From: an uncultured Clostridia bacterium
Lineage (GTDB): Bacteria > Bacillota > Clostridia > Peptostreptococcales > Anaerovoracaceae
Reading direction: 5' to 3'
NCBI GenBank assembly: GCA_934234035.1
Contig: CAKQHH010000005.1
Location: 1-64,000, forward strand
Length of the DNA: 64,000 nt
The notes under the pieces are model-generated. The model was not told where the DNA came from. It saw only the letters and a program-made list of their open reading frames with translations, and made no database searches. Positions 9,703 through 51,411 of the stretch are shown piece after piece. Both the position numbers and the translations under genes were made by a program. The stretch's first letter is position 1; each line of letters starts with the position of its first letter.

Positions 9703-9745
9703 TTACATCAATATATTGCATCAATTTTGGGGAGGAGAAATATTT

Positions 9746-11329
9746 ATGAAGAGGAGAACGTTTAAACGTCTATGTACCATGTGTCTGGCATTTGTGGCAG
9801 CATTTACGATGGGCATGTCCACAGCATCTTTTGCAGCGACGCCGGATACGGAAGATGTAATGAAGGTTTACAATGTGGAGAAGGGTGCCACTGTTACGGC
9901 ATACCAAATTGTAAAGGAAGTAAAAGGTGAATGGAAACCGGTCGATGGCGTAAATATCAAAGATCCGACCAATCCGACTGCAAATGAGATTACAATGATT
10001 AACGTAAATGAACTCAAACCAATCCCGTTAACACAGGGGCCGGACGGTGTGTACTCCAAAGCCGGAGAAGCGGCCGGAATGTACCTGATTGAGGTCTATG
10101 GTACCGGTGCAACCGTGTACAATCCGATGATTGTCAGCGTGGATTATGATAAAGTAGCCGACAGTGTCGACGCAAAATCCAATTTTTCAAACAATGCATA
10201 CGCAAAGAGCAGCACTCCGGAAGTAAAGAAGACCAACGATAAGACCGGAAATACCGGTGTTGAGGCGAAGCCGACAACCAACAAAGGCACCTCGGTACAG
10301 GTGAACGGAACAGCGAATTTCACTATCGAGACGATTATTCCGTCCTACAGTGCACATTACGAAAATCCTACATTCAAAGTCACCGACAAGATGGATTCGG
10401 GTCTCACTCCACCGGAAGCAAAGGATGTGAATGTAACCGTCGGCGGAAAAGCGATTCCGGACGGAAAGTGTACGGTTACAAAGAAAGCGGATGGATTCGA
10501 AGTTGCATTCGACAGCGCTTATGTCCGCAGCTTAGCTTCTAAAACAGATAACGAGAGAAAAGTGGTAATCAAGTACGGTGCCTTGGTTAACGATAAAGCA
10601 ACCTGGAACTTCGTACCGAATAAGAACAAAGCCACCATCACATACAGCAAGAACGAAGCAGCTACCGATACAAAAACCGATAATTCCAAGGTTTACACAT
10701 TCGGTCTGGATGCAACTTTAAACGGAACTGCAACTACCAACAACAAGAAGACGCACGAAATCATTAAGCTGAATGAGGACGGCAAAGCACAGAATCTGGG
10801 CTACACCTCGGAATCCGGCAAGGAAGAAAACGGCGAGAACGCTCTGGCCGGAGCAACCTTCACGCTCTACAACGATAAGTCCTGCGCCGATAATACAAAG
10901 GTAACGGAGACAACGACCACAGATAACGGTTACATGGAAATGAAGGGACTCAAGGAAGGAACTTATTACCTGAAGGAGACCGCCGCACCGAATGGATATG
11001 CACCGCTCAGCGATGTATACACGGTTAAAATCTCCGCACTCTACAACGACAACGGTACGCTGAAGAGCTACACGGTGAACATCACGGATGCGAACAAAAA
11101 GACTTACACCTCCACTTACAACGCAACGTACACGGACGGTGACAGCCTGAATCAGGTAACTGTAGCAGACAATTCCGAAACTCTGTTCATCAAAAACAAC
11201 AGAATGTCCGGACTGCCGTCCACCGGCGGCATGGGAACTTACATCTTCCTGATTGTCGGCGCAGCCATCATGGCATTTGCGGCAGTTGCTTTCGTAAAGA
11301 ACTCGAAAAAGGCAAACGAGACCAAATAG
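9746..11329 (+). CDS. LPXTG-anchored major pilin (SpaA/isopeptide type)
   Basis: Surface pilus shaft protein, 527 residues from the ATG at 9746, which follows GGGGAGGAG. A Sec signal peptide covers about 30 residues and ends near SFAA. A middle region rich in Thr, Asn and Lys fits isopeptide-bonded Ig-like pilin domains. A CnaB/SpaA-type domain carries the E-box YYLKETAAPNGY with Glu411. The C-terminal sorting signal is LPSTG (490-494), a hydrophobic helix and a basic tail. The usual pilin motif (VYPK) is absent. Lys136 in VSVDYDK at the end of the N-terminal domain occupies the equivalent position. Assembly by the adjacent sortase is inferred. Confidence 0.9.
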   Translation: MKRRTFKRLCTMCLAFVAAFTMGMSTASFAATPDTEDVMKVYNVEKGATVTAYQIVKEVKGEWKPVDGVNIKDPTNPTANEITMINVNELKPIPLTQGPDGVYSKAGEAAGMYLIEVYGTGATVYNPMIVSVDYDKVADSVDAKSNFSNNAYAKSSTPEVKKTNDKTGNTGVEAKPTTNKGTSVQVNGTANFTIETIIPSYSAHYENPTFKVTDKMDSGLTPPEAKDVNVTVGGKAIPDGKCTVTKKADGFEVAFDSAYVRSLASKTDNERKVVIKYGALVNDKATWNFVPNKNKATITYSKNEAATDTKTDNSKVYTFGLDATLNGTATTNNKKTHEIIKLNEDGKAQNLGYTSESGKEENGENALAGATFTLYNDKSCADNTKVTETTTTDNGYMEMKGLKEGTYYLKETAAPNGYAPLSDVYTVKISALYNDNGTLKSYTVNITDANKKTYTSTYNATYTDGDSLNQVTVADNSETLFIKNNRMSGLPSTGGMGTYIFLIVGAAIMAFAAVAFVKNSKKANETK

Positions 11330-14347: not shown

Positions 14348-16252
14348 TTAGTCAATTATTTCCACGGACGTGCCGAAAAGGTTCCCGGCTTCCTCCGCAA
14401 TTTCGGTAACGATATCGTCCTTCTGCTGCATCTGGGTTGGGTAATCCACGCCCCCCATCATATTGTAGTCGGAGGGAACGATTTCATCCACCCCTTCATC
14501 GCCGATGCCGAACTCCGCTTCCGCCGGGTATGCCGGCACTTCCGGTGTGGGCGGTATTGGCGTCGCTGCCGGTGGGGTAGAAGGCTTCGCTGCTGCAGCC
14601 GGTTTCACGGCCCGCGCCGGCGCTGTCCCGGTCGGTGCTCCCTTTCCGTCGTCGGACCGCAAGGTTACTACCGCGTGCTCGCCCAAAATCTGCCGAGCCG
14701 CCGCCTGAATCTCCGCCTTACAGTCGTTGGCCAAGCCGATCTTATTCGCCTTTACCAAAATCGACAGTTCCCCGTTCCGGTAGGATTCGATTCGGCTGGT
14801 GCTTCCCACCATAATCCGGAAGCTGGCACCCGCATCCTGCGCCACGATATCCACAATCCGATCCCATACCGCTTCCGGATCGAATCCGGCCTCATAAAAA
14901 GAATCTTCCGCCGCGTCGGAGGTTTCCGGTACGGTCGGTGCCGCTTCTTTGGCCGGCGTTGGAACTGCTTCCGGGGTTTCCGGAATAGCTGCGGCCGGTG
15001 CCGCAGGTTCCGATACCGTTGCGGCCGGCTCCGCCGCTTCTTTTGGCTCTGCTGCTTTTTGGGGCTCTGCCGCTGCCGCCTGCACCGCCGGTACCAGCGG
15101 CACCTTCTTGAGTTCTGCTTTTGCCAGCTGAAGCATCTCCGCGACTTTGGACGACGGCACCGCCTTGCCGTTCATCAGGTGCAGCGCGGCCGTTTCCAGA
15201 AGAATTCGCGGCTGGGTGGAATAGCGTGCCAGGTTGATGTATTCCGAAAGAAGGCGAATGCTCATCTCCAAAGAATCCGCATCCATCTGACTTGCCTGCA
15301 GCCGCATGCGGCCGATGTTCTCCTCCGATGCATTGATCAGCCGCTTAGCATCGTCCACATACCGCACCACCATCAGGTTCCGGTAATGCTCCAGCCAATC
15401 GCTGAATATCTGTTTCGCGTCGCAGCCGGTGCGGAGGGCATCGCCCACCCGCTTCAGCGCTTCCGCCATATTGTGTTCGATTACGTTCTGGGTCAATCCC
15501 AGATAGAAGTCCAGTCCGGCACTGCCCAGGTAGTCTTCCACCGTCTCTAAGTCCACCAGTTCATCGCCGCCGCTGATGCACTGCTCCAGAATGCTGAGTC
15601 CGTCCCGCACGGATCCGTCGGCCTTCTGCGCCACCAGTGCCAGGGCATCCCGGGTGATGTTCACTTGTTTTCGCCGGCAGATTCGAGCCATTCCTTCAAT
15701 CAGGTCCTCTTCGGACACTCGGCGGAAATCCAGCCGCATGCACCGGGAACGGATGGTTTCCCGCACCTTCTCCGGATTGGTGGTAGCCAGGATGAAAATC
15801 ACATGCTCCGGCGGTTCTTCCAGGGTTTTCAGGAAGGCATTCTCCGCACTGGTGGAAAGCATGTGCACCTCGTCGATGATGTAGACCTTATACCGGCCCA
15901 CCATCGGCGGATAGTTCACCCGGTCGATTAAGTCCCGCATATCATCCACACCGTTGTTGGATGCGGCATCCATCTCGATGACATCCAGAAAACGGCCTTC
16001 CTTAATGGCTTTGCAGCTCTCGCATTCGCCGCAGGGAAGCTGTCCGTCCGCCGGATCGCCGGTGCAGTTCAAGGCCTTCGCCAGAATTCGGGCCGTGGTG
16101 GTCTTTCCCGTTCCCCGCGTGCCGGTGAACAGGTAGGCCTGGCTCACATTGTCCGTTTCCAGCTGATGCTGCAGAATCCGCACGATGTGCTTCTGTCCGA
16201 TGATTTCATTGAAACGCTCCGGCCGCTCCGACCGATACAAAGCTAGATGCAT
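14348..16252 (-). CDS. dnaX: DNA polymerase III subunit tau/gamma
   Basis: Clamp-loader ATPase of about 634 residues. It has Walker A GTRGTGKTTTARI near residue 46, a four-Cys zinc module (CTGDPADGQLPCGECESC), Walker B IIDEVHML and the SRC motif SRCMRLDF. An Ala/Pro/Glu-rich linker near residues 385-470 connects to the C-terminal polymerase-binding part. The start is taken at 16252 because GGGAGGAAAG directly precedes that ATG. The ATG at 16264 lies before this site and is unlikely to be used. No A6G slippery heptamer was seen, so a frameshifted gamma form is not predicted. Confidence 0.96.
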   Translation of the reverse strand: MHLALYRSERPERFNEIIGQKHIVRILQHQLETDNVSQAYLFTGTRGTGKTTTARILAKALNCTGDPADGQLPCGECESCKAIKEGRFLDVIEMDAASNNGVDDMRDLIDRVNYPPMVGRYKVYIIDEVHMLSTSAENAFLKTLEEPPEHVIFILATTNPEKVRETIRSRCMRLDFRRVSEEDLIEGMARICRRKQVNITRDALALVAQKADGSVRDGLSILEQCISGGDELVDLETVEDYLGSAGLDFYLGLTQNVIEHNMAEALKRVGDALRTGCDAKQIFSDWLEHYRNLMVVRYVDDAKRLINASEENIGRMRLQASQMDADSLEMSIRLLSEYINLARYSTQPRILLETAALHLMNGKAVPSSKVAEMLQLAKAELKKVPLVPAVQAAAAEPQKAAEPKEAAEPAATVSEPAAPAAAIPETPEAVPTPAKEAAPTVPETSDAAEDSFYEAGFDPEAVWDRIVDIVAQDAGASFRIMVGSTSRIESYRNGELSILVKANKIGLANDCKAEIQAAARQILGEHAVVTLRSDDGKGAPTGTAPARAVKPAAAAKPSTPPAATPIPPTPEVPAYPAEAEFGIGDEGVDEIVPSDYNMMGGVDYPTQMQQKDDIVTEIAEEAGNLFGTSVEIID

Positions 16253-16275
16253 CTTTCCTCCCATAATATAGACAA

Positions 16276-16419
16276 CGCTCTTAGATTACCTGCAGATTGG
16301 AGAAGACGGGTCTGCGGCACAGGGTAAGGACCGCTTATTGCTGCTTCCTCTCGGACCTGACAAGATTCACGGCTCACCCTTGCGCAGGGTCCCCTCGACC
16401 TGCAGGTAATCTAAGAGCG
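16276..16419 (-). ncRNA. ffs: SRP RNA, copy 1 (4.5S/ffs-like), upstream of dnaX
   Basis: RNA scaffold of the signal recognition particle that binds Ffh, about 144 nt. The apical helix 8 reads GTCAGGTCCGAGAGGAAGC, giving a UCC-GAGA-GGA hairpin with a GNRA loop and the conserved AGG / AGCAGC internal loop. The rod below it pairs step by step. The ends form a perfect 20-bp stem (CGCTCTTAGATTACCTGCAG and its complement). There is no U-run after the stem and the dnaX ATG is 24 bases on, so the RNA is probably processed from a transcript that continues into dnaX. No large Alu domain is evident. Confidence 0.93.
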
Positions 16420-16446
16420 CTCGATTCTCACATAAACTCAGTGCTT

Positions 16447-16475
16447 ATTATATAATTTAAAAATTTTATTGTCAA
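16447..16475 (-). promoter_or_regulatory. Consensus promoter of SRP RNA copy 1
   Basis: TTGACA (16475-16470), exactly 17 bases, TATAAT (16452-16447) on the minus strand: a perfect match to the vegetative consensus. Start of transcription is expected near 16440, about 20 bases before the SRP RNA stem. Confidence 0.93.
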
Positions 16476-16520
16476 TCTCTCTATGGCATCGTGGATTTCC
16501 GCCGCGGGATTCGCGCCACA

Positions 16521-16558
16521 GAAAGAGGCGGTGCGCCCCATTTCCGGCCGCACCGCCC
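16521..16558 (-). terminator. Terminator of the amino-acid ABC operon
   Basis: A GGCGGTGCG / CGCACCGCC stem with a 13-base partly structured loop lies 34 bases past the ATPase stop and is followed by TCTTTCTG on the minus strand. The short T-run makes the efficiency uncertain. Confidence 0.65.
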
Positions 16559-16591
16559 CTAAAGTGTCCCTATTGTTTATTCTGTTTTCTT

Positions 16592-17386
16592 CTATTTCTT
16601 CACCTGCAGCATGGCGCCCAGGAATTCCTGAAGCCGCTCGCTCTTCGGATGTTCGAAGATTTCCTCCGGCGTTCCTTCCTCCACAATTTTGCCCTTGTTC
16701 ATGAACACCACTCGGTCCGCCACTTCCCGGGCAAAGCCCATCTCGTGAGTCACCACCACCATGGTGGTATTTCGGGCAGACAGCGTCTTCATTACGTTCA
16801 GCACTTCTCCCGTAATCTCCGGGTCCAGGGCGGACGTGGGTTCGTCGAACAGCATGATTTTCGGCTCCATGGCCAGCGCCCTCGCAATGGCCACCCGCTG
16901 CTTCTGTCCGCCGGAGAGACGACCCGGAAACTCATTTCTCTTGTCCTGGAGCCCTACCAGCTTCAGGAGCTCCAGCCCCCGCGCCTCCGCATCGGCCGGA
17001 TTCACGCCTTTTACTTTTACCGGCGCGTAGGTGATATTCTTCAGGCAGTTCATGTGCGGGAAAAGGTTGAAGTGCTGGAACACCATTCCCGTTTCGCAGC
17101 AGATGCGCTTCAGTTCTTTCTCCGTCGGATACACCGCCTCCGGCTGTCCGTTCTTATTCTGTACCTGTCCTTTTTCCGAATCCACGAAAACCTCCCCGTT
17201 CAGAGCGATGCTTCCTTGAGTGATTCGGGTCAAGGCGTTGATGCAGCGAAGGAGGGTGCTCTTCCCGGAGCCGGACGGTCCGATAATGGCCACGGTTTCG
17301 CCCTTTTCCACCGATAGACTCACGTCGTCCAGAGCCCGGCAACCGGCAAAATCCTTCACGATATTCTTCATTTCCAGCAGTGCCAT
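16592..17386 (-). CDS. Polar amino-acid ABC transporter ATPase (GlnQ/HisP type)
   Basis: Cytoplasmic ATPase of about 264 residues. It carries Walker [12 protein letters not shown], signature [15 protein letters not shown], Walker [15 protein letters not shown], and His in VVTHEMGFA, all typical of the polar amino-acid family. An insertion of about 20 residues between Walker A and the Q-loop (around [16 protein letters not shown]) is longer than in GlnQ itself and resembles HisP-like members. The start at 17386 follows AAAGGAGG, one base after the permease stop. The amino acid carried is not identifiable from the ATPase. Confidence 0.93.
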
Positions 17387-17387
17387 T

Positions 17388-18056
17388 CTAGGCCTCCTTT
17401 CCATCGTACAGGGACGTCTTCTTTTCCAATCTCTCCAGCAGGCAGGTCACCAGGAAGGAGAACACCAGATACATCGCCGCCGCGATTACGTACGCCATCA
17501 GGGAACCGTCTCTGTTCACGATGCTTTTGGACACTTTCATAATATCCGCCAGGGCAATTGCCGACGCCAGCGCCGTGTCCTTCACCAGGACGATGATCTC
17601 GTTGGAAATCGGCGGAATCACGATGCGAAATGTCTGGGGCAAAACGATACCGAACAGCGTCTGGCTCCGGCTCAGTCCCAGCGAATGCGCCGCCTCGTAC
17701 TGGCCCGCGTCGATGCTCTTCATGCCGCCCCGATAGATCTCCGCAAAATACGCCGCATAGTTCAGCGCAAAGGTAATCACCGCCGTCGGAAACGCATCCA
17801 TGCGGATGTTCAGGCAAATCGGGAAGAAGTAGTAGAAGAAGAACAATTGCAGCATCAGCGGCGTTCCCCTAAAAACAAGTACGTACACTTTACAGAACCA
17901 CCGAAGAGGCGGCAGATTCGAATTCTCCCCCAATGCGATGGGCAGTCCCAGCGGCAAGGAGAAAATCAATGTCAAGGCAAATAATTCCAGTGAAATAATC
18001 GCCCCTTGCAAAAGTGCCGGTGTAATTGTCTGTATGTAGCTCATATAACTCCTCAC
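17388..18056 (-). CDS. Polar amino-acid ABC transporter permease
   Basis: Membrane subunit of 222 residues with about five hydrophobic segments and the His/Glu/Gln/Arg/opine family coupling loop ([20 protein letters not shown] near residue 130). It appears to be the only permease in the operon, so a homodimer is likely. It follows the binding-protein gene after a 150-base spacer that carries a very stable hairpin, which would allow less permease than binding protein to be made. Confidence 0.92.
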
Positions 18057-18061
18057 AATCC

Positions 18062-18087
18062 GTCAGCGGGTCCGAAGACCCGCTGAC
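18062..18087 (-). promoter_or_regulatory. Intercistronic UUCG-capped hairpin
   Basis: A perfect 11-bp stem (GTCAGCGGGTC with GACCCGCTGAC) is closed on the minus strand by a C(UUCG)G tetraloop. No U-run follows, so it is more likely an mRNA-stabilising or attenuating element between the binding-protein and permease genes than a full terminator. Confidence 0.75.
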
Positions 18088-18137
18088 CCATCAAACTCCT
18101 TATAGATTCATATGATAAAGCAAAGTGCAGTCATTCA

Positions 18138-18219
18138 CCTTATCGTCCCATGCTGTCATATCCAAAGTTGTCAAATCCCTAGTTGTCGTATCCTTGTCGT
18201 CAAATCCCTAGTTGTCATA
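18138..18219 (-). repeat. Degenerate 29-30 bp tandem repeat at the end of the binding-protein gene
   Basis: On the minus strand, unit A (18219-18191, 29 bases) and unit B (18190-18161, 30 bases) share the 17-base core CGACAACTAGGGATTTG (unit A starts TATGAC, unit B TACGAC). A third, decayed unit runs on to about 18138. The stop codon TAG of the binding protein lies in unit A, so the repeat straddles the coding end. It is not a CRISPR array: there are too few units and no spacers. Confidence 0.75.
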
Positions 18220-19032
18220 CCCCTCGTTGATAATCAGGCTGCTGCCTTTGCCAAACCATTTCTCGCAAATCTTGTCTGCCGTTCCGTCATCGATGCATTC
18301 CTGAATCGCATCGTTCACCTTTGCAGCCAATTCCTTGTCTCCCTTACGGAAGCCTACCGCGTACTTATCCGATCCGAAATCGAAATCCGACTGATACAGT
18401 TTGGTTTTATTCTTGTTGTTGTACAGTGCGTATACTTCGTCGATGACGATAACATCGATGCGGCCCGCTTTCATATCCAGAATCGCTTCATCGTAGGTTG
18501 GATATTCCGATACGTTATCCGCAAAAGAATCATAATTCTTATCCGCCTTAATGGATTCCAGCGCTGCCGAATCCGCCTGCGTACCCACCTTGTAGTTCTT
18601 CAGATCCGCACTGCTCTTGATGTTGATGCCCTTGTCCAGGGACATAACCAAAATCTTATTGTTAAAGTACTTGTTGGACAGTGTCATGCTCTTCTGACGA
18701 TCCTTCGTCGCCGACATTCCGTTCCACACGCAATCGATGTTCTTGGATTTCAGCTCCGCTTCCTTGGCATCCCAGTCGATTGGCTGGAATTCCACCTTGA
18801 TGCCCAGCTTCTTTCCAACAGCCTTCGCCAGATCGATGTCTACGCCCACCAGGTTATCGTCCTTATCCCGGAAACCCATCGGTGCAAAAGTATCATCCAG
18901 TCCTACCGTCAGCGTACCCTTGTCTTCAATATACGCATAATCCGAGGCTTCCTTGGAGCTTCCGCATCCGCTCAGCAGTGCCATTCCGGCAACCAATGCA
19001 ACTGTTGTAATCAGATAGATAAATTTCTTCAT
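18208..19032 (-). CDS. Polar amino-acid-binding lipoprotein
   Basis: Extracytoplasmic receptor of 274 residues. It has a lipoprotein signal with a good lipobox (LLSGC, Cys about residue 23), then the SBP_bac_3 fold: LTVGLDDTFAPMGF near the start, IDLAKAVGKKLG, and an aspartate-rich cleft (IDVIVIDEVYAL). The family is that of glutamine, arginine, histidine or cystine receptors. The ligand is not deducible. It is first in its operon, and the C-terminus (NEGYDN) is encoded by the start of a tandem repeat, so the final residues may be recently acquired. Confidence 0.92.
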   Translation of the reverse strand: MKKFIYLITTVALVAGMALLSGCGSSKEASDYAYIEDKGTLTVGLDDTFAPMGFRDKDDNLVGVDIDLAKAVGKKLGIKVEFQPIDWDAKEAELKSKNIDCVWNGMSATKDRQKSMTLSNKYFNNKILVMSLDKGINIKSSADLKNYKVGTQADSAALESIKADKNYDSFADNVSEYPTYDEAILDMKAGRIDVIVIDEVYALYNNKNKTKLYQSDFDFGSDKYAVGFRKGDKELAAKVNDAIQECIDDGTADKICEKWFGKGSSLIINEGYDN

Positions 19033-19072
19033 TTTCCTTCCCTCGTCCTTTTTTCATTTTTTCATTTTTTCT

Positions 19073-19101
19073 CGCCGGATCCCTTTGCTCCGGCGGTTTT
19101 T
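19073..19101 (+). terminator. Plus-strand terminator-like hairpin in the ABC leader
   Basis: CGCCGGA / TCCGGCG stem with a 9-base loop. On the plus strand GTTTTT follows. No plus-strand gene ends here, so it may stop antisense transcription. On the minus strand it is a plain hairpin in the 5' leader of the binding-protein mRNA. Confidence 0.4.
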
Positions 19102-19105
19102 GTTT

Positions 19106-19145
19106 TATCACTTTATCGTGTTAAAGTACTAATGTGATAGTGTTA
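19106..19145. promoter_or_regulatory. Candidate operator of the amino-acid ABC operon
   Basis: Just past the -10 box, GTGTTA occurs twice, 22 bases apart (19118-19123 and 19140-19145), about two helical turns. The inner copy sits in an 18-base inverted repeat ACTTTA-6-TAAAGT (19110-19127). Outer arms TATCAC and GTGATA (19106-19111, 19134-19139) add further symmetry. The position suits a repressor. No cognate regulator gene is adjacent. Confidence 0.6.
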
Positions 19146-19173
19146 TAATACCAAAGGTCGGTTCTTTTGTCAA
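19145..19173 (-). promoter_or_regulatory. Promoter of the amino-acid ABC operon
   Basis: TTGACA (19173-19168), 17 bases, TATTAT (19150-19145) on the minus strand. The transcript would carry a leader of about 105 bases before the binding-protein ATG. Confidence 0.85.
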
Positions 19174-19232
19174 TAAAATATAAGTATTTTTATAAATTCA
19201 TCTCTGTTTTTCTGTTCAAAAAAATAAAAAAA

Positions 19233-19377
19233 CGCCCTTAGATAACCTGCAGTCCATCAAGAGGTGGATCTGCGGCACACGGACGGAACCGCTTATTGCT
19301 GCTCCCTCTCGGTCCTGACAAGGTTCACGGGCGTCCATTGCGCAGGACCCCTTGAAACCGCAGGTTATCTAAAGACG
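19233..19377 (-). ncRNA. SRP RNA, copy 2 (paralogue of copy 1)
   Basis: About 145 nt with the same rod fold as copy 1. The terminal stem differs by compensatory changes: an A-U becomes U-A (AGATTACC to AGATAACC, matched on the other strand) and G.U pairs appear. A lower helix changes from AGGGT/ACCCT to GGACG/CGTCC. The apical part reads GTCAGGACCGAGAGGGAGC, keeping the GAGA loop and AGCAGC motif, but placing an A opposite a G at the pair next to the internal loop. A T7-A-T7 tract directly follows the terminal stem, so the RNA has its own terminator. A TATAAT at 19401-19396 may be its -10 box, with a poor -35. Confidence 0.88.
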
Positions 19378-19405
19378 TTTCGTCTCACTTATTCAATTAT
19401 ACGCA

Positions 19406-19431
19406 GCGGAAGCGGGCACAGCCCGCTCCGC
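19406..19431 (-). terminator. GC-rich hairpin after rplQ
   Basis: GCGGAGCGGGC pairs with GCCCGCTTCCGC, with one bulged base and a 3-base loop, 15 bases past the rplQ stop. It probably ends the ribosomal superoperon, but no U-run follows and the TATAAT of SRP RNA copy 2 comes next, so read-through into that RNA is possible. Confidence 0.5.
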
Positions 19432-19446
19432 CTGTCAAATCATATC

Positions 19447-19788
19447 TTATACCAGTTCCAGATATACGACTTCTGCGTTGTCTCCCTGTCTCGGTCCGAG
19501 CTTGAGAATTCTGGTGTAACCACCATTTCTATCTTCATATCCCGGAGCGATTTCTTCAAACAGCTTTGTTACAACGTCCTCGTCAAAGATATATTCGAGT
19601 ACCTGTCTCCGTGCGTGAAGATCACCCTTCTTTGCCTTTGTAATCATCTTTTCAGCGATACGGCCGGCTTCTTTCGCTCTCATCTCAGTGGTAGTGATTC
19701 TACCCTCTCTGAAGAGATCGGTTACCAGGTTTCTCAGCATGGATTTTCTGTGTGCAGAATTTCTGCCCAGCTTTCTGTAACCCTTCAT
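19447..19788 (-). CDS. rplQ: Ribosomal protein bL17
   Basis: Large-subunit protein of 113 residues, full length for Bacillota ([22 protein letters not shown] at the N-terminus, an rRNA-binding helix). It is the last gene of the S10-spc-alpha superoperon, 17 bases after rpoA. It binds domain VI of 23S rRNA near the exit tunnel. After it, related genomes usually carry ecfA-ecfT-truA. Here a hairpin and the second SRP RNA follow. Confidence 0.97.
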
Positions 19789-33995: not shown

Positions 33996-34217
33996 TGTAG
34001 ATCCTCCTATAATTTGTACTGTTTTCGCTATGCTTGTACAGGACTTCACTTCATTCGCCCCGGGCTTTCGTTTTGCTCCTACACTCTTTCGAGCGTTTCC
34101 CAAATGAATGCTCAAAACAAAAGTAGCGAACCCCTTCGCCCCCGTCTCGCGAGGACAATTCTCGGCAGAAATTACCTGATAGCTCAGCAACTTCCTGCTT
34201 CATCGCCTTAAACAAGC
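33996..34217 (-). promoter_or_regulatory. Long 5' leader of the S10 operon
   Basis: About 220 bases separate the predicted transcription start from rpsJ. Short complementary segments occur (for example TTCATT with AATGAA across an 80-base domain), but I could not settle one fold and see no terminator with a U-run. It is a candidate for ribosomal-protein feedback control. Confidence 0.5.
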
Positions 34218-51237: not shown

Positions 51238-51297
51238 TTGTTCTCCTTTCCTGACCGCCGGGCGGTCATAGTTTTGTTCCGAATGTCACACACGGTA

Positions 51298-51382
51298 CAA
51301 AATACCCCGCTATGGAGACAGCGGGGTTCAATTTATATTGTACCTCGGCGGGAAATTAAGCTTTCGCACCCGCTGTCTACGG
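51298..51382 (-). promoter_or_regulatory. Ribosomal protein L10 leader with attenuator
   Basis: The leader carries the signature L10 element: GCGGG (51373-51369) and CCCGC (51352-51348) form a helix around the conserved TGCGAAAGCTTAAT kink-turn loop. An 8-bp hairpin ACCCCGCT / AGCGGGGT followed by ATTTTG (51298-51327) is the terminator. AGACAGCGGG (51378-51369) is exactly complementary to CCCGCTGTCT (51325-51316), so the two structures are mutually exclusive. Free L10 stabilising the kink-turn helix should favour termination. Confidence 0.92.
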
Positions 51383-51411
51383 TTGATATTCGATTTTTAA
51401 AAGATAACGAT

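What the first reader, a model, noticed from the sequence alone, without database searches (positions are those of the whole stretch)
16276..19377. Two divergent SRP RNA genes within 3 kb
Both 16276-16419 and 19233-19377 carry the apical SRP motif (GTCAGG...GAGAGG...AGCAGC) and fold into the same rod of about 145 nt. Bacteria normally have one SRP RNA gene. The copies are not a recent duplication: their terminal stem and a lower helix show paired, compensatory changes (A-U to U-A; AGGGT/ACCCT to GGACG/CGTCC), so both have been kept under structural selection.
Basis: partly seen in the sequence, partly recalled or inferred. Interest (0 to 1): 0.8.

Follow-up and report, generated by a model that had tools for sequence, protein, structure and literature searches.

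The report
Two old, diverged SRP RNA genes
This bacterium carries two clearly different, well-preserved genes for the RNA of the protein-targeting particle SRP, where nearly all relatives examined have one, so one protein partner probably has to work with two RNAs.

Summary
Confirmed. Both stretches, on the minus strand, are SRP RNAs (RF01854 92.2 and 98.8 bits, cut-off 60). A (16276-16419) lies just before dnaX, the usual place (74 of 91 distinct SRP genes with enough downstream DNA). B (19233-19377) lies between rplQ and an ABC-transporter operon. They are identical in 108 of 145 columns yet keep one rod, with changes on both sides at 11 of 56 pairs. Sister genome G001 has both; A there is 143/144 identical although nearby four-fold sites differ by 19%. 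A third congener, G002 (80% complete), shows only B; its glnQ-dnaX gap holds no SRP RNA. So B apparently suffices there. Two SRP hits occur in 5 of 349 family genomes and 4 of 398 Bacillota; of the seven besides G001, four are split contigs, one is probably a mixed bin, one was not followed, one is a recent tandem repeat. Each of 6 genomes checked has one Ffh over cut-off. B carries a conserved A·G mismatch beside the Ffh-binding loop, in 3 of 121 distinct cores, all B. Best reading: old local duplication, both copies functional. Expression and binding are untested.

The parts
16276..16419 (-). SRP RNA copy A (144-nt rod, U-A pair above the symmetric loop, GAGA tetraloop), directly upstream of dnaX
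   Evidence: RF01854 92.2 bits; fold and 143/144 identity with G001
19233..19377 (-). SRP RNA copy B (145-nt rod, A.G mismatch above the symmetric loop, GAGA tetraloop), directly downstream of rplQ
   Evidence: RF01854 98.8 bits; 143/145 in G001 and 138/145 in G002
16447..16475 (-). Promoter-like site of copy A: TTGACA, 17 nt, TATAAT (12 of 12 consensus bases)
   Evidence: 7 promoter-like sites in the region against 3.6 expected; only this one is 12 of 12; unchanged in G001
16253..16275 (-). 23-nt leader between A and the likely dnaX start (16252): GGAGG, no run of 4 or more T
   Evidence: sequence; the G002 DnaX begins at the same MHLALYRSERPERF
14348..16264 (-). dnaX open frame (listed from ATG 16264; likely start 16252), followed by ybaB and recR
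   Evidence: names by resemblance to the relatives' genes, no family search run
19396..19401 (-). TATAAT upstream of B; TTGACA at 19433-19438 is 31 nt away, too far for an ordinary sigma-70 promoter; TATACT and TTAACA in G001
   Evidence: by eye; not reported by the scan
19405..19432 (-). G+C-rich hairpin between rplQ and B, inside that 31-nt spacing; present in G001, not in G002
   Evidence: by eye
19218..19232 (-). T-rich tail right after B's terminal stem: terminator-like end made from the SRP rod itself
   Evidence: sequence; not flagged by the simple scan, whose loop limit of 3-8 excludes such a rod
19447..19788 (-). rplQ, end of the rpsD-rpoA-rplQ run, upstream neighbour of B
16592..19032 (-). 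Amino-acid (glutamine-type) ABC-transporter genes between B and A: binding protein 18208-19032, permease 17388-18056, ATPase 16592-17404
   Evidence: names by resemblance (recalled), no family search run

Best explanation
Both genes make genuine SRP RNAs that load the same single Ffh. A holds the ancestral place before dnaX; B is an old copy, made locally in the rplQ-to-dnaX interval before G002 split from the window/G001 lineage, and the ABC-transporter operon now lies between them. The copies persist because they are expressed differently: A from its own consensus promoter, running into dnaX without an obvious terminator; B as a self-terminated gene behind the rpoA-rplQ operon, probably fed at least partly by ribosomal-operon read-through in the window and G001. 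Once B supplied the RNA, A became dispensable, and G002 lost it. Shown: identity, positions, conservation, absence from G002's gap, one Ffh. Inferred: function of both RNAs, read-through, order of events.
For: Rfam scores well above cut-off for both. A differs from G001 at 1 of 144 sites while four-fold sites of the four genes nearest A (dnaX, glnQ, glnP, SBP) differ at 115 of 619 (binomial 5e-12, a rough test; recR 14 of 103 and ybaB 6 of 51, further off, were left out); the promoter stretch of A is unchanged. B differs from G002 at 7 of 145 against 55 of 261 four-fold sites in rpsD, rpoA, rplQ (3e-8), with a pair-keeping A-U to G-C change. G002 shows one SRP gene, B, and a 177-nt glnQ-dnaX gap without an SRP RNA but, by eye, with TTGACA and TATAAT. 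An SRP gene next to dnaX is the usual arrangement: 74 of 91 distinct SRP genes with 600 nt or more downstream. In 29 named loci with rplQ, SRP RNAs were found in three, none nearer to rplQ than about 1.5 kb; one locus ends inside rplQ and two hold under 300 nt beyond it. One Ffh over cut-off plus one weaker, FtsY-like match in 6 of 6 genomes.
Against: No expression or binding data. G002 is 80% complete, so a second SRP gene elsewhere cannot be excluded. The tree does not resolve A, B and the copies of the Mogibacterium group (A+B as one clade p-AU 0.49; B with that group 45/0), so the duplication could be older than the genus; B shares an A with that group at the mismatch site. Lack of a T-run after A is weak evidence: only 26 of 72 full-length hits have 4 or more T in a row there. 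B's promoter is uncertain.
Confidence: 0.55

Rival explanations
1. Plain dosage: two interchangeable SRP RNA genes, kept only because more SRP RNA is useful; sequence differences are neutral within the fold.
For: Same rod, same GAGA tetraloop, one Ffh; many of the differences between A and B keep the pairing.
Against: Dosage copies usually stay alike by gene conversion (recalled), as G647's near-identical tandem pair is; A and B are identical in only 108 of 145 columns. G002 appears to do with one.
Confidence: 0.25
2. Replacement in progress: B is the working SRP RNA; A is on its way out and is kept mainly as promoter and leader of dnaX; G002 shows the end point.
For: G002 has promoter-like hexamers before dnaX but no SRP RNA; A has no T-run and only 23 nt before the likely dnaX start.
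Against: A is 143/144 identical to G001's A, the whole Ffh-binding hairpin included, against 19% change at nearby four-fold sites; a mere leader would not need that.
Confidence: 0.15
3. B is a conformational or regulatory SRP RNA: its A.G mismatch lets the Ffh-binding hairpin refold, so that B-SRP forms only under some condition.
For: In B of all three genomes the predicted probability of the canonical hairpin pairs is 0.21-0.25, against 0.93-0.98 in A; A.G in 3 of 121 distinct cores, all B.
Against: The energy model does not describe the known non-canonical pairs of this loop; next to the G.A pair, A.G could form a stable tandem sheared pair (recalled). Of 13 relatives, 4 also score only 0.50-0.78. 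B looks like the only copy in G002.
Confidence: 0.15
4. Artefact: assembly error or contamination put two SRP genes in one window.
For: Four of the seven other two-hit genomes are split contigs and one is probably a mixed bin.
Against: The window holds both on one sequence with 2.8 kb between them; G001 (99% complete, 0% contamination) has each with the same neighbours, though on two contigs.
Confidence: 0.02

Closest known systems
Single ffs/scr gene upstream of dnaX in Bacillota (e.g. B. licheniformis scr between tadA and dnaX, PMC3871023, table passage seen)
   Same: A: same RNA family, same place before dnaX
   Different: Here a second, diverged copy sits behind rplQ
Near-identical tandem SRP RNA pair in genome G647
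   Same: Two SRP RNA genes about 1.5 kb apart, dnaX next to one
   Different: G647's copies are nearly identical; A and B are diverged with compensatory changes
Single SRP RNAs of G100 and G102 (Mogibacterium MAGs) and G101 (uncultured Clostridiales MAG)
   Same: GAGA tetraloop; A at the 5' side of the pair above the symmetric loop, as in B; dnaX next downstream, as in A
   Different: One copy only; that pair is A-U, not A.G

Membership tests
Bacterial SRP RNA (Rfam RF01854 / RF00169) | Covariance-model score over the curated cut-off | tested here: met
   A 92.2, B 98.8 bits vs 60 for RF01854; the G001 orthologues also pass RF00169 at 61.3 and 65.6 bits vs 40
Bacterial SRP RNA (Rfam RF01854 / RF00169) | Ffh-binding hairpin: symmetric loop with CAGG / AGCA and GNRA-type tetraloop | tested here: met
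   Motif in both, GAGA tetraloop; its role from PMC5115805 passages
Bacterial SRP RNA (Rfam RF01854 / RF00169) | Three standard pairs between tetraloop and symmetric loop | tested here: inconclusive
   A: three pairs. B: two pairs plus A.G in all 3 B orthologues
Bacterial large SRP RNA (Alu-bearing) | 5' Alu domain | tested here: inconclusive
   RF01854 is aligned over its whole length, but the 5' part has low posteriors and many non-standard pairs in A, and in B falls on the hairpin upstream of TATAAT; the rods end at about 145 nt
Bacterial SRP RNA (Rfam RF01854 / RF00169) | Binds Ffh in the cell | not testable with these tools
   One Ffh over cut-off in G001 and in G002

The most novel reading that the evidence does not exclude
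One Ffh works with two functionally distinct SRP RNAs. B, tied to the ribosomal-protein operon and carrying a conserved A.G mismatch that destabilises the free Ffh-binding hairpin, forms an SRP with different assembly or FtsY-docking behaviour from the dnaX-linked A-SRP: a natural division of labour at the RNA level of protein targeting.
Probability: 0.2. Interest if true: 0.75.

Novelty: new variant of a known kind. Interest (0 to 1): 0.5.

Why it matters
SRP RNA was single-copy in nearly all of the genomes searched here. A natural pair of diverged, conserved SRP RNAs that share one Ffh, together with a congener that seems to have lost one, would let the roles of the loop-closing pair, the tetraloop and the gene's placement be tested with natural variants instead of made mutants.

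Tried and rejected
Not supported: horizontal or plasmid origin. Only A (with flanks) was searched, in the plasmid collection: short 73-base matches in 2 Listeria records; four-fold divergence of the genes around A between the window and the other two genomes is alike from gene to gene. Rejected as true doubles among the other two-hit genomes: G240, G349, G563, G675 are one gene cut at overlapping contig ends (100% identical overlaps of 119, 141, 213 and 73 nt); G168 has two dnaX-linked copies, most likely a mixed bin. G141's two copies do not match each other at DNA level; one is a 198-bit RF01854 match without a dnaX hit beside it, possibly foreign; not followed. Led nowhere: a first motif scan that was far too loose; the tree, which leaves A, B and the Mogibacterium-group copies unresolved; naming the organism (own assembly not held; nearest named RpoA 86-87%). 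Literature: nine searches. No listed title or opening abstract describes two diverged SRP RNA genes in a bacterium; three of these lists were cut (20 of 431, 20 of 47 and 12 of 37 papers listed), the library lacks most subscription journals, and only passages of three papers were seen, so this is weak evidence of absence. The large genome searches used strict filters that lose weak matches.
Full report
WHAT IS THERE. Both stretches lie on the minus strand and are SRP RNA genes. RF01854 finds two places in the 64 kb: 19212-19438 at 98.8 bits and 16261-16486 at 92.2 bits, cut-off 60. The rods proper are A 16276-16419 (144 nt) and B 19233-19377 (145 nt), with folding energies of -79.6 and -75.2 kcal/mol. 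They are identical in 108 of 145 aligned columns. A is followed by the dnaX open frame, then ybaB and recR; B follows rplQ at the end of an rpsD-rpoA-rplQ run; three genes resembling an amino-acid ABC transporter lie between, all in the same direction.

THE HOST. The window's own assembly is not held. The nearest held genome, G001 (99% complete, 0% contamination, 39% shared 31-letter words), has one congener held, G002 (80% complete). The nearest named RpoA proteins, 86-87% identical, are from two Mogibacterium MAGs and one uncultured Clostridiales MAG; records very near the window may be left out of that search. The family appears to include [Eubacterium] infirmum: G013 and the named locus L045 have a contig of the same length, 1,537,028 bases; this is an inference.

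HOW RARE. RF00169 gives two matches in 1 of 99 relatives, 93 having at least one. RF01854 gives two in 5 of 349 family genomes, 315 having at least one. RF00169 gives two in 4 of 398 Bacillota genomes searched at a completeness limit of 95, 391 having at least one. G001 recurs in all three sets. Among 13 genomes behind named loci, 12 have one match and one has none. Of the seven other two-hit genomes, G240, G349, G563 and G675 are single genes cut at overlapping contig ends; G168 has two dnaX-linked copies whose DNA is 79% identical over dnaX, most likely a mixed bin; G141 was not followed. G647 is a true but near-identical tandem pair 1.46 kb apart on one contig, with four tRNA genes and a deaminase-like frame (by eye) between. 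So a diverged pair with shared ancestry was shown only in the window and G001. Strict filters mean that weak copies could be missed.

THE TWO COPIES IN THE GENUS. G001 has both, with the window's neighbours: A with the transporter genes and dnaX on one contig, B with rpoA and rplQ on another; each contig ends in the interval between the transporter and B. G002 has B behind rplQ; its contig C83 carries permease, ATPase and dnaX with a 177-nt gap that holds no SRP RNA, only, by eye, promoter-like hexamers. A is therefore absent from its place in G002, though a copy in the missing fifth of that genome is not excluded.

SELECTION. Between window and G001, A differs at 1 of 144 sites, while four-fold degenerate sites of dnaX, glnQ, glnP and SBP differ at 115 of 619; a binomial comparison gives 5e-12. 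recR (14 of 103) and ybaB (6 of 51), further from A, were not pooled. The stretch from 14 nt before the TTGACA of A's promoter to the RNA is also unchanged. B differs at 2 of 145, but four-fold sites of its neighbours differ at only 5 of 266, so this says nothing by itself (P 0.49). Against G002, B differs at 7 of 145 while the neighbours differ at 55 of 261 (3e-8), and the changes include a pair-keeping A-U to G-C. These tests treat sites as independent and are rough.

STRUCTURE. On five sequences (winA, winB, G001A, G001B, G002B) with A's fold, 96.8% of 280 cells pair, 11 of 56 pairs have changes on both sides (6 of 500 shuffles as high), and the covariation score is 0.289 against 0.153 in shuffles (0 of 500) and 0.036-0.096 when slid; the number of further pair types does not exceed shuffles. 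On 18 sequences of the family RNAalifold predicts 44 pairs, 26 with a change on both sides in at least one sequence.

A DETAIL IN B. The pair between the two C-G pairs of the tetraloop stem and the symmetric loop is U-A in A and A.G in B. Among 121 distinct SRP cores from the loci fetched by then it is U-A in 109, A-U in 5 (G100, G101, G102 and the two of G168), C-G in 4 and A.G in 3, the B orthologues. The tetraloop is GGAA in 109, GAGA in 10 and TGAC in 2. A few of these cores are truncated at contig ends. The predicted probability of the canonical hairpin pairs is 0.93-0.98 in A and 0.21-0.25 in B of all three genomes; of 13 relatives, 9 score 0.88 or more and 4 (G101, G102, G005, L141) 0.50-0.78. 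The model does not describe the non-canonical pairs of this loop, and a tandem G.A/A.G arrangement may be stable (recalled), so refolding is a hypothesis. That the internal loops bind Ffh and the tetraloop contacts FtsY is stated in PMC5115805 (passages seen).

ORIGIN. Of 121 distinct SRP genes, 91 had at least 600 nt downstream, and 74 of these are followed by dnaX; the 17 without include B and several from outside the family. B. licheniformis has the same order (PMC3871023, table passage). In 29 named loci with rplQ, three hold an SRP RNA, at about 1.5 to 6.5 kb from rplQ and each before dnaX; L043 ends inside rplQ, and L040 and L046 hold under 300 nt beyond it. So B's place looks derived. 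A and B share a terminal-stem sequence (TTAGAT.ACCTGC) that none of the 13 relatives aligned has as a whole, though parts of it occur there (by eye); this speaks for a duplication in this lineage. The tree leaves A, B and the Mogibacterium-group copies unresolved, and B shares an A with that group at the mismatch. The three B form one group with moderate support (86/90), so A is unlikely to be a copy of B made after the G002 split.

EXPRESSION. A has a 12-of-12 promoter match and no T-run in the 23 nt before the likely dnaX start. B has TATAAT with TTGACA 31 nt upstream, a hairpin between, and a T-rich tail after its rod. In G001 both hexamers before B are changed; in G002 the upstream region is different. 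I infer that B in the window and G001 is at least partly transcribed from the rplQ operon; this is untested.

VERDICT. Two genuine, diverged SRP RNA genes; one Ffh over cut-off in each of 6 genomes checked, the window's own genome not being held. Most likely an old local duplication in which both copies work, with B able to stand alone. Unusual, testable, a new variant of a known kind.

Noticed in passing
L240 (G647:C22:13500-23500): Near-identical tandem SRP RNA genes 1.46 kb apart in another Bacillota family, with four tRNA genes and a deaminase-like frame (by eye) between them.
   Followed up: partly
window 19396-19438 (-): Perfect TTGACA and TATAAT hexamers 31 nt apart with a G+C-rich hairpin between them, just before SRP RNA B; both changed in G001, and the region is different in G002.
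   Followed up: partly
window 9716-11329 (+): 537-aa frame that looks like a surface pilin subunit with an LPSTGG sorting-type motif near its end (by eye, no family search).
   Followed up: no
window 34136-34211 (-) and 51289-51400 (-): Ribosomal-protein leaders: S10-Clostridia (39.2 bits) and L10 leader (66 bits).
   Followed up: no
L132 and L147: Two family members have TGAC in place of the GNRA-type tetraloop in their single SRP RNA match.
   Followed up: no
winB and G002B, columns 110-111 and 122-123 of alignment A2: Paired double changes (TC to CT, TG to GT) in an internal loop and a bulge of B that could form an alternative small hairpin in both species.
   Followed up: no
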